DNA of 40,875 nucleotides from a virus. The stretch spans positions 1-40,875 of the IMG/VR virus record IMGVR_UViG_3300021356_000048; one strand, written 5' to 3'. Under the pieces are notes generated by a model, which saw only the letters and a list, made by a program, of their open reading frames with translations, had not been told where the DNA came from and ran no database searches. The position numbers were made by a program, and so were the translations under genes. Below, piece after piece: positions 31,131 through 35,849 of the stretch; the stretch's first letter is position 1; every line of letters starts with the position of its first letter.

Positions 31131-31138
31131 AATAAAAT

Positions 31139-31167
31139 GTGTAAAAATTTATTTAAGTTAATATGAT
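31139..31167 (+). promoter_or_regulatory. Promoter-like element before the DNA polymerase gene
   Basis: GTGTAA at 31139-31144 and TATGAT at 31162-31167 are separated by exactly 17 bases. The same pair, inside a shared AATGTGTAAAAATT string, also with a 17-base spacer, lies before the gp32-like gene. TATGAT is close to the host-type -10 box TATAAT; the -35 part is not standard. A transcript would begin at about 31174, the first base of the polymerase ATG. Promoter function is inferred. Confidence 0.5.
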
Positions 31168-34428: not shown

Positions 34429-34457
34429 GTGTAAAAATTAAATTTATATAATATAAT
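34429..34457 (+). promoter_or_regulatory. Promoter-like element before gp32-like gene
   Basis: GTGTAA at 34429-34434 and TATAAT at 34452-34457 have a 17-base spacer, matching the element before the polymerase gene. The -10 box is a perfect host sigma-70 type match. A second TATAAT overlaps at 34447-34452. The predicted start point is about 34464, giving a leader of about 75 bases. The shared string AATGTGTAAAAATT suggests common control, perhaps by a phage factor. Confidence 0.55.
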
Positions 34458-34477
34458 GTAGACATAATTGGTCTACA
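34457..34477 (+). repeat. Seven-base inverted repeat in gp32-like leader
   Basis: TGTAGAC (34457-34463) and GTCTACA (34471-34477) form a perfect inverted repeat around ATAATTG. In RNA this could form a 7-base-pair hairpin. The loop bases TAATTG are complementary to CAATTA found twice downstream (34498-34503 and 34513-34518), so a pseudoknot is possible. If transcription starts at about 34464, the left arm would not be in that transcript, and the repeat might instead be a DNA operator. Confidence 0.5.
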
Positions 34478-34530
34478 ACAAAAATTAAAAAATTAACCAA
34501 TTAAAAATTAAACAATTACAAAATGAAAGG
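34472..34530 (+). promoter_or_regulatory. G-free AATTA-repeat leader, possible gp32 autoregulatory site
   Basis: Bases 34472-34524 contain no G. Five AATTA units begin at 34483, 34491, 34499, 34506 and 34514, a 7-8 base period. The ribosome site (AAAGG, 34526-34530) follows directly. In T4, gp32 represses its own translation by binding cooperatively to an unstructured A/U-rich leader behind a pseudoknot, covering about 7 bases per monomer. The layout here is consistent with the same control; binding itself is inferred. Confidence 0.5.
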
Positions 34531-34539
34531 TAAATATTT

Positions 34540-35325
34540 ATGGCTATCGATTTAGCAGCAATTCGCAAGAAACTTGGACAACTAAGCGGTCAAAATTCAA
34601 GAAAAAACACTATGTGGCGTCCTGAAGAAGGTTCTGAAACAACTGTTCGTTTAATGGCATATCCAGACAATGAAGGTCAACCATTTAAGGAACTTATGTT
34701 TTATTACAACATTGGTAACAACCCTGGTCTTCTTGCTCCATATCAATTTGACAAGCCAGATCCAATCCAAGAACTAATTACTAAATTAAGAGAAGAAGGT
34801 TCTAAAGAGTCTTATGAATTGGCAAAGAAATTATATCCAAAAATGCGTTGTTACGCTCCAGTTGTTGTTCGTGGTGAAGAAGAAAAAGGCGTTCGTTTAT
34901 GGGCATTTGGTAAATCAGTTTATCAAACACTTTTAAATTATATGCTTGATGAAGATTACGGTGATATTACAGATCCACACGAAGGACGTGATGTAAGAGT
35001 AAATTGTCAAAAGAATCCAGGACAATCTTGGGCTACAACTGATGTACGTCCACGAGGTAAAGACTCACCATTATCAGAAGATTCTTCAAAGTCTAAGCAA
35101 TGGTTAGATAATATTCCAGATGTAAATGATCTATTTGAGTTAAAGTCTTATGAAGAACTAGAAAGAATCATAAATGAATGGCTTAATGGTGACGAAGAAG
35201 ACTCAAAAGAAACTTTTAGAGGTGGTTCAAACAAGCCAAAAGTAGAAGACTCTAATTCTCCTGATGCAATTAATGGTAAATATAAAAGCCTTGATGATGC
35301 ATTTGCTGATTTAGACTCACTATAA
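34540..35325 (+). CDS. 32: Single-stranded DNA-binding protein gp32-like
   Basis: This is a gp32-type single-stranded DNA binding protein, which coats and protects exposed strands and coordinates replication and recombination proteins. It has 261 residues (T4 gp32 about 301). The N-terminal basic part has IRKKLGQLSGQNSRKNTMW. The OB-fold core shows ETTVRLMAYPD, PFKELMFYYNIG, RCYAPVVVRGEEEKGVRLW and FGKSVYQTLLNYM. The C terminus is acidic and ends in SLDDAFADLDSL, the partner-recruiting tail expected of such proteins. The zinc-binding cysteine cluster of T4 gp32 is missing: only two isolated cysteines are present. It has its own promoter-like element and an unusual leader that fits autoregulation. 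Confidence 0.88.
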   Translation: MAIDLAAIRKKLGQLSGQNSRKNTMWRPEEGSETTVRLMAYPDNEGQPFKELMFYYNIGNNPGLLAPYQFDKPDPIQELITKLREEGSKESYELAKKLYPKMRCYAPVVVRGEEEKGVRLWAFGKSVYQTLLNYMLDEDYGDITDPHEGRDVRVNCQKNPGQSWATTDVRPRGKDSPLSEDSSKSKQWLDNIPDVNDLFELKSYEELERIINEWLNGDEEDSKETFRGGSNKPKVEDSNSPDAINGKYKSLDDAFADLDSL

Positions 35326-35339
35326 AGCAAGGAATTTTA

Positions 35340-35849
35340 ATGAAAAAATTAGTAATATTATTGTCAATGTTTTTTGTTTTAGCTTGTGGTTCATCTCCAA
35401 AAACAAGAGTTGATAAATTGCCTCCTTGGGTAGCTGATCAACCTGATTTATGTGGCGTAGGAATTCATAAGTCTAGAAACAATCTAGGTGCAGATAGAGA
35501 ATTTTCTATTGCTAAAGGTAGAAGAGACTTAAGCAGAAAGCTTGAAACAAAAGTAGGCGATATGATTAAGCTATATGAAGAATCAGGCGAAGCAGACTCT
35601 GAAAATTTTAATGAAGAGTTATCAAGATCAGTTTCTGTTAGTTTGTCTAAAACTGTTATTAATGGATCTAATCCAAAGAAAATAGTAATAGATGACGTTT
35701 ATGTTTACTCGCTTGTTTGTTTAAATCCAGATTCTTTGACAAATGCAATTAATCAAATGAATACTTTAAGTCAAGCACAAAGAAAAGCTTTGACAAGAAG
35801 AGCAGAAATAGCGAACAAAGAACTTGCTGAACAAATGAAAGAATATTAG
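35340..35849 (+). CDS. LPP20-like lipoprotein
   Basis: This 169-residue protein begins with a classical lipoprotein signal peptide: MKK, a hydrophobic run, then the lipobox VLAC with Cys16 as the residue to be lipidated. Gly at position 17 does not retain the protein at the inner membrane, so outer-membrane sorting is possible. Just after it comes LPPWVADQ and a GVG strand, then helices with A/R/D-rich repeats, a layout like the LPP20 lipoprotein family of Gram-negative bacteria. It lies between the gp32-like and RecA genes with a 14-base gap upstream and 1 base downstream, an odd site for an envelope protein. A role in blocking superinfection, altering a receptor or aiding lysis is possible but not shown. 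Confidence 0.7.
   Translation: MKKLVILLSMFFVLACGSSPKTRVDKLPPWVADQPDLCGVGIHKSRNNLGADREFSIAKGRRDLSRKLETKVGDMIKLYEESGEADSENFNEELSRSVSVSLSKTVINGSNPKKIVIDDVYVYSLVCLNPDSLTNAINQMNTLSQAQRKALTRRAEIANKELAEQMKEY

What the first reader, a model, noticed from the sequence alone, without database searches (positions are those of the whole stretch)
34457..34530. gp32-like gene has a G-free leader with five AATTA units about 8 bases apart: probable autoregulatory operator
The sequence shows 53 bases without G, five AATTA units at a 7-8 base period, a preceding perfect inverted repeat, and a ribosome site at the end. T4 gp32 is known to repress its own mRNA by cooperative binding to an unstructured A/U-rich leader behind a pseudoknot, with a site size of about 7 bases. 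The loop TAATTG of the inverted repeat can pair with either of two downstream CAATTA copies, offering a pseudoknot. The same logic may thus be kept here with different sequence. The unclear transcription start may exclude the left hairpin arm.
Basis: partly seen in the sequence, partly recalled or inferred. Interest (0 to 1): 0.72.

Follow-up and report, generated by a model that had tools for sequence, protein, structure and literature searches.

The report
Phased self-control leader of phage gp32
The gene for a virus's single-stranded-DNA-coating protein is preceded by an RNA leader with a short ATT word repeated every 7-8 bases up to the ribosome site, a spacing conserved in hundreds of related ocean viruses only before this gene, which suggests that the protein shuts off its own production by lining up on its own message.

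Summary
The leader of the gp32-like gene (CDS 34540-35325) has a 53-nt G-free run (34472-34524) and five AATTA units at 34483, 34491, 34499, 34506 and 34514 (spacing 8, 8, 7, 8; 0 of 20,000 dinucleotide shuffles). It is conserved. In 113 non-redundant leaders of relatives, nearly all uncultivated viruses, ATT recurs at lags 7 and 8 about 5-6 times more often than in shuffles (z 20 and 15), although the unit sequences drift. Leaders of other genes in the same phages show no excess. The gp32 leader ranks first of 109-312 ORFs in three large relatives. In the close clade a stem (UAAUUGG 34465-34471 with CCAAUUA 34497-34503) is kept with compensatory changes. Best reading: an autogenous gp32 translational operator of the T4 kind (5' structure, then a G-poor array up to the ribosome site), but with a family-wide 7-8-nt phase, close to T4 gp32's 7±1-nt site. 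T4 and KVP40 arrays have period 5. Binding and repression are untested. New variant of a known kind.

The parts
34429..34435 (+). -35-like element GTGTAAA
   Evidence: In the subclass-A leaders read by eye it lies exactly 16 nt before TATAAT (printed leaders); only such pair in the window, 0.06 expected
34452..34457 (+). -10 element TATAAT; predicted transcription start about 34464 (an overlapping TATAAT at 34447-34452 would put it near 34459)
   Evidence: sequence and conservation in relatives; start site inferred from usual sigma70 spacing, not mapped
34458..34462 (+).
   Evidence: covaries with the right arm: 19 non-redundant arm pairs, mean run 4.24 against 3.19 +/- 0.18 permuted, 0 of 5000; lies at -6 to -2 of the predicted start
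34472..34476 (+). S1 right arm TCTAC
34465..34471 (+). S2 left strand TAATTGG (5' end of the predicted mRNA)
   Evidence: S2: 91.5% of cells paired, 3 pairs with changes on both sides (0.5 expected, 3/500 shuffles), covariation score 0/500; MFE stem of the modelled primary transcript in nearly all of 19 relatives
34497..34503 (+). S2 right strand CCAATTA (also holds ATT unit 3)
34472..34524 (+). G-free leader tract, 53 nt
34483..34487 (+). array unit 1 AATTA
34491..34495 (+). array unit 2 AATTA
34499..34503 (+). array unit 3 AATTA
34506..34510 (+). array unit 4 AATTA
34514..34518 (+). array unit 5 AATTA
34525..34530 (+). Shine-Dalgarno GAAAGG
   Evidence: sequence; kept in relatives
34540..35325 (+). 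gp32-like ssDNA-binding protein, 261 aa
   Evidence: Pfam gp32 1.4e-10, above gathering score; PHROG ssDNA-binding protein 2.3e-19; AF2 model matches RB69 gp32 core E 6.2e-9 and T4 1gpc 1.4e-7

Best explanation
This is an autogenous translational operator of a gp32-type ssDNA-binding protein. When free gp32 exceeds the ssDNA available, monomers bind the leader next to the 5' structural element and polymerise along the G-poor array, about one monomer per 7-8-nt ATT unit, until the filament covers the Shine-Dalgarno sequence and blocks initiation; new ssDNA titrates gp32 away and reopens the gene. Shown here: the gene is gp32; the array, its 7-8-nt phase, its alignment to the SD and its restriction to this gene are conserved; a 5' structure lies ahead of it and S2 covaries. 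Inferred from T4/RB69: that gp32 binds here, cooperatively, and represses. Inferred from the period only: that each unit seats one monomer.
For: 113 non-redundant leaders: ATT lag 7 observed 110, expected 17.3; lag 8 88 against 17.6; harmonics at 14-16 (z 10, 10.5, 5.6); holds separately in close (n=22) and distant (n=91) sets and at 55% identity non-redundancy (34 tracts: spacing 7 x31, 8 x24, any other spacing at most 5). ATT positions peak 3-4, 10-12, 17-21 and 27 nt before the SD. 95 leaders of other genes in the same phages: lag 7 10 against 10.0, lag 8 13 against 9.8; 2% have two or more in-phase pairs against 58% of gp32 leaders. gp32 leader ranks first of 312, 149 and 109 ORFs in three large relatives. 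S2 covariation. In the distant clade a 36-nt window ending 18-24 nt before the SD folds better than shuffles (mean z -1.1 to -1.2) while the last 36 nt do not (0.0). Architecture matches the T4/RB69 operator as described in PMC535899 and PMC3014915. T4 gp32 site size n = 7+/-1 nt, PMC5892887.
Against: No binding or repression data. T4's UUAAA repeats and the KVP40-type ATAC repeats have period 5, and cyanophage gp32 leaders show AAT at lag 9 (z 12.8), although gp32 site size, where known, is 7: so the period need not be the footprint. Unit 3 is inside S2, so structure and full coverage compete. The predicted unpaired probability of the last 30 nt is no higher than in shuffles (0.578 against 0.567). 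About 8% of the gp32 leaders have no in-phase ATT pair. In G006 the gp32 leader did not appear in the ranking, probably because my ORF finder took an upstream start.
Confidence: 0.7

Rival explanations
1. Translational enhancer: an unstructured A/U-rich landing site for ribosomal protein S1 or the 30S subunit that makes gp32, an abundant protein, well translated.
For: The last 36 nt before the SD are no more structured than shuffles; A/U-rich unstructured leaders favour initiation (general knowledge). Part of the array could serve this as well.
Against: Other genes of the same phages, which are also translated, show no 7-8-nt phase; an enhancer does not explain a fixed period, a covarying 5' stem, or lineage-specific arrays at gene 32 of T4, KVP40 and cyanophages.
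Confidence: 0.12
2. The leader is bound by another phage regulator (for instance a RegA-like translational repressor) rather than by gp32.
For: RegA binds A/U-rich unstructured initiation sites in T4 (PMC3014915).
Against: A general repressor would be expected to mark several genes; the phase is found almost only at gp32, with one uvsX leader as the exception.
Confidence: 0.08
3. DNA-level control: the covarying inverted repeat (S1 and its longer versions) that spans the -10 and start site acts on transcription, and the array is secondary.
For: The S1 left arm lies in the discriminator or overlaps the -10; leaders without S1 have longer repeats spanning the -10 (read-through folds); L318 has TGCTTAAG-TATAATG-CTTAAGCA.
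Against: Arms change sequence together between relatives, unlike a protein operator; G-U pairs are used in several copies, which points to RNA, such as read-through transcripts; it does not explain the array.
Confidence: 0.07
4. The array is a by-product of slippage or duplication in AT-rich DNA.
For: Adjacent units are often alike; the leaders are AT-rich.
Against: 85 different 7-mers surround ATT; the spacing persists among tracts less than 55% identical and is absent from other AT-rich leaders of the same phages.
Confidence: 0.03

Closest known systems
T4/T2 gene 32 translational operator
   Same: 5' structured element followed by a G-poor tract of short A/U repeats running to the SD of gene 32; T4 leader read here: TGCC/GGTA and GCTATGA/TCATAGC pseudoknot stems (assignment mine), then TTAATTAAATTAAATTAAAAAGG
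   Different: Here units are AATTA-like at 7-8 nt instead of UUAAA at 5; no sequence similarity; pseudoknot loop 2 is about 20 nt in the window, about 10-38 nt by relative, instead of a few nt; S1 left arm probably not in the primary transcript; a promoter lies directly at the leader
RB69 gene 32 operator (PMC535899)
   Same: Shows that sequence can diverge while structure and autogenous repression are kept
   Different: Far closer to T4 than the present leader; RB69 was shown experimentally, this one was not
RB49 gene 32 leader (reported without pseudoknot, PMC535899, PMC3014915)
   Same: A gp32 leader that may lack a classical pseudoknot
   Different: The two papers disagree on whether RB49 keeps UUAA units; no conserved 7-8-nt phase reported
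STAXI motif (PMC2864571)
   Same: Pseudoknots near ssb genes
   Different: Tandem pseudoknots, other genomes; no Rfam family matches the window or leader

Membership tests
gp32-type ssDNA-binding proteins (Pfam PF08804) | Sequence match above gathering score | tested here: met
   42 bits against 26.8
gp32-type ssDNA-binding proteins (Pfam PF08804) | gp32 core fold | tested here: met
   Foldseek: RB69 core E 6.2e-9, TM (target) 0.70; 1gpc 1.4e-7
gp32-type ssDNA-binding proteins (Pfam PF08804) | Cys-X3-His-X5-Cys-X2-Cys zinc motif of T4 gp32 | tested here: not met
   The family consensus has only two scattered Cys; the motif is a T4-type trait as quoted and not needed for the Pfam match
T4-type gene 32 translational operator | Lies directly upstream of gene 32 and runs to its SD | tested here: met
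T4-type gene 32 translational operator | A/U-rich tract of short repeated units before the SD | tested here: met
   but units and period differ from T4
T4-type gene 32 translational operator | RNA pseudoknot at the 5' side | tested here: inconclusive
   Both stems are supported by comparison, but the S1 left arm lies upstream of the predicted start, and about a third of close relatives lack S1 at that place
T4-type gene 32 translational operator | Sequence homology to T4/RB69 operator | tested here: not met
   By eye, T4 and RB69-type leaders do not align to this leader; no Rfam match
T4-type gene 32 translational operator | Repression of its own translation by the encoded gp32 | not testable with these tools
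   needs binding and reporter experiments

The most novel reading that the evidence does not exclude
The array is a register template: each 7-8-nt unit seats one gp32 monomer in the same frame, so that a protein with almost no sequence preference tells its own mRNA from other nucleic acid by the phase of a repeated trinucleotide. The unit and period drift between phage lineages (5 in T4 and KVP40, 9 in cyanophages, 7-8 here), possibly together with the protein's footprint.
Probability: 0.4. Interest if true: 0.78.

Novelty: new variant of a known kind. Interest (0 to 1): 0.62.

Why it matters
How gp32, a largely sequence-independent ssDNA binder, recognises its own mRNA is stated as unclear in PMC535899, and wider study of gp32 autocontrol in diverse phages is called for in PMC3014915. 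A gene-specific 7-8-nt phase conserved through strong sequence drift in a large family of mostly marine phages offers a simple, testable answer (phase rather than sequence) and a comparative data set: arrays with periods 5, 7-8 and 9 in different lineages can be set against the footprints of their proteins.

Tried and rejected
Rfam, gathering and E-value searches: nothing. Folding the leader alone: not more stable than shuffles (z -0.70); the S1 hairpin by itself is not significant without comparison. Sequence profile against PDB sequences: no gp32 hit, so the fold search was used. Pairing of the loop with the second CAATTA (34513-34518): possible in the window, not the site kept in relatives; rejected as the conserved partner. 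First control set accidentally contained some gp32 genes, which came out on top; removed by BLASTP and repeated. Host assignment: gp32 relatives in cellular genome records lie in bins of unrelated bacteria, not trusted. L267's S2 is no better than chance by itself (P 0.81), although it supplies one of the three double changes; single-leader S2 P values are 0.02-0.13 for the rest, so S2 rests on the joint evidence. A wider rule 'every T4-like gp32 leader has period 7' was rejected: T4, KVP40 and cyanophages differ. The MAFFT alignment A1 misplaced the S2 strand in some relatives; S2 was therefore counted on excised strands, a register I chose, so the slid-structure control is partly circular.

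Full report
What is there. The window is a 40,875-base virus record. ORF 34540-35325 is a gp32-type ssDNA-binding protein: Pfam gp32 above its gathering score, PHROG ssDNA-binding protein, and an AlphaFold2 model (mean pLDDT 76.7) whose best solved matches are the RB69 and T4 gp32 cores. It stands among UvsX-like recombinase, 5'-3' exonuclease, DnaB-like helicase and dUTPase genes. In 20,000 dinucleotide shuffles no array of even four such units arose.

It is conserved, and the spacing is the conserved thing. Seven protein-guided scans of viral contigs and one of genome contigs, with a few phage records, gave 161 distinct leaders, 113 of them less than 75% identical in the 48 nt before the SD. 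There the trinucleotide ATT recurs at lag 7 (110 observed, 17.3 expected) and lag 8 (88, 17.6), again at 14-16, and at no other lag in excess. Close (72% identity or more) and distant relatives show it separately. With tracts filtered to less than 55% identity (34 left) the successive spacings are 7 (31 times) and 8 (24 times), any other spacing at most 5 times. The units themselves drift: AAATTAA, CAATTAA, ACATTTA, CCATTGA, ATATTGC; 85 different 7-mers. The units are phased to the SD: ATT peaks 3-4, 10-12, 17-21 and 27 nt before it. A long G-free tract, in contrast, belongs to the close clade only: the longest run averages 38.8 of 48 nt there, 19.4 in distant relatives and 16.5 in control leaders.

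It is specific to this gene. In 95 non-redundant intergenic leaders of other genes from the same contigs, lags 7 and 8 are at expectation (10 against 10.0; 13 against 9.8); 2% of them have two or more in-phase pairs, against 58% of gp32 leaders. Coding-overlapping leaders add a small lag-8 excess (40 against 21.8), far below that of gp32. In three large relatives the gp32 leader has the longest in-phase ATT chain of all ORFs tested (first of 312, 149, 109). In a fourth (G006) it did not enter the ranking, probably because the ORF finder took an upstream start.

Structure. In the close clade (41 leaders, 19 non-redundant) a stem S2 joins the 5' end of the predicted mRNA (TAATTGG, 34465-34471) to CCAATTA (34497-34503). 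On 22 distinct strand pairs 91.5% of cells pair; three pairs show changes on both sides (T-A to C-G, T-A to A-U, A-U to U-A among them), 0.5 expected, reached by 3 of 500 shuffles; the covariation score is not reached by any. This is modest in number, and the strands were excised in a register that I chose. S1 and S2 together would make an H-type pseudoknot with the strand order of the T2/T4 gene 32 pseudoknot.

The promoter complicates this. The close relatives have GTGTAAA, 16 nt, TATAAT, and ATTGG follows TATAAT by about eight nt. By usual sigma70 geometry transcription would start near 34464, so the S1 left arm (34458-34462) would not be in the primary transcript. Folding models of 19 relatives give S2, or a stem that uses the same 5' strand, as the best stem of the primary form, and S1 or a longer inverted repeat spanning the -10 as the best stem of read-through RNA in most. 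No terminator was found between the upstream ORF (end 34427) and gp32 on the + strand, so read-through is plausible. What the S1-type repeats do is unresolved; they may serve read-through mRNA, or DNA. In the distant clade a structured element lies at windows ending 12-30 nt before the SD (mean z down to -1.17) and the final 36 nt are not more structured than shuffles.

How it probably works. T4 and RB69 gp32 repress their own translation by nucleating at a 5' pseudoknot and polymerising over a less structured tract with UUAAA/UAAA repeats that contains the ribosome site (PMC535899, PMC3014915). The present leader has the same order of parts, at the same gene, with a new and strongly conserved feature: a 7-8-nt phase. 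T4 gp32 occupies 7+/-1 nt (PMC5892887; also used in PMC10484735). I therefore propose that gp32 monomers bind one per unit and that the filament closes the SD when gp32 is in excess. Shown: gene identity, conservation, gene-specificity, phase, S2 and S1 covariation. Inferred: binding, repression, one monomer per unit.

Limits. No experiment is available. Other lineages do not share the period: T4's UUAAA has period 5, KVP40-type Vibrio phages have a near-perfect 5-nt ATAC array, and cyanophages have a hairpin followed by AAT at 9 nt (z 12.8). So a repeated unit before the SD looks like a wider habit of gene 32, but the period is not simply the T4 footprint. Whether period and footprint go together in each lineage is the key test. 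Shuffle z-scores treat non-redundant leaders as independent, which they are not fully; the 55% filter and the gene control address this only in part.

Novelty. The mechanism class (autogenous gp32 operator) is known. The phased array, its conservation over a broad family and its drifting units were not found in the papers searched, in a library that lacks most subscription journals. I rate it a new variant of a known kind.

Noticed in passing
L251 and L053, between gp32 stop and uvsX start: The uvsX gene has an ATT-array leader of its own (TAAATTAATAAATTAAAAATTTAAACAATTAAATAATAAAGAAG), a possible second gp32-controlled message.
   Followed up: partly
L498, L631-L635 (KVP40-type Vibrio phages), 50 nt before gp32: A 5-nt array of the form nATAC (CAATACGATACAATATCATACTATACAATACAAGG in KVP40) directly before the gene 32 SD, kept with drift in relatives.
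   Followed up: partly
L551-L630 (cyanophage-type gp32 leaders): Hairpin such as GCTACGATTACACAGTAGC, then a tract with AATAC/AATCC units at 9-nt spacing (AAT lag 9, z 12.8) before the SD of gp32.
   Followed up: partly
L318, L281, L291 leaders (distant clade): An inverted repeat flanks the -10 exactly (TGCTTAAG-TATAATG-CTTAAGCA), kept with G-U pairs in L281 and L291, followed by a GCAATA/TATTGC hairpin at the start site.
   Followed up: no
window 35340-35849: A lipoprotein-like ORF sits between gp32 and uvsX almost without gaps; many relatives have a terminator-like hairpin and a new promoter-like sequence there instead.
   Followed up: no
window 31138-31145: TGTGTAAA, the -35-like element of the gp32 promoter, also occurs just before the DNA polymerase A-like gene (31174), without the TATAAT at 16 nt; the count in the window is at chance level.
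   Followed up: no
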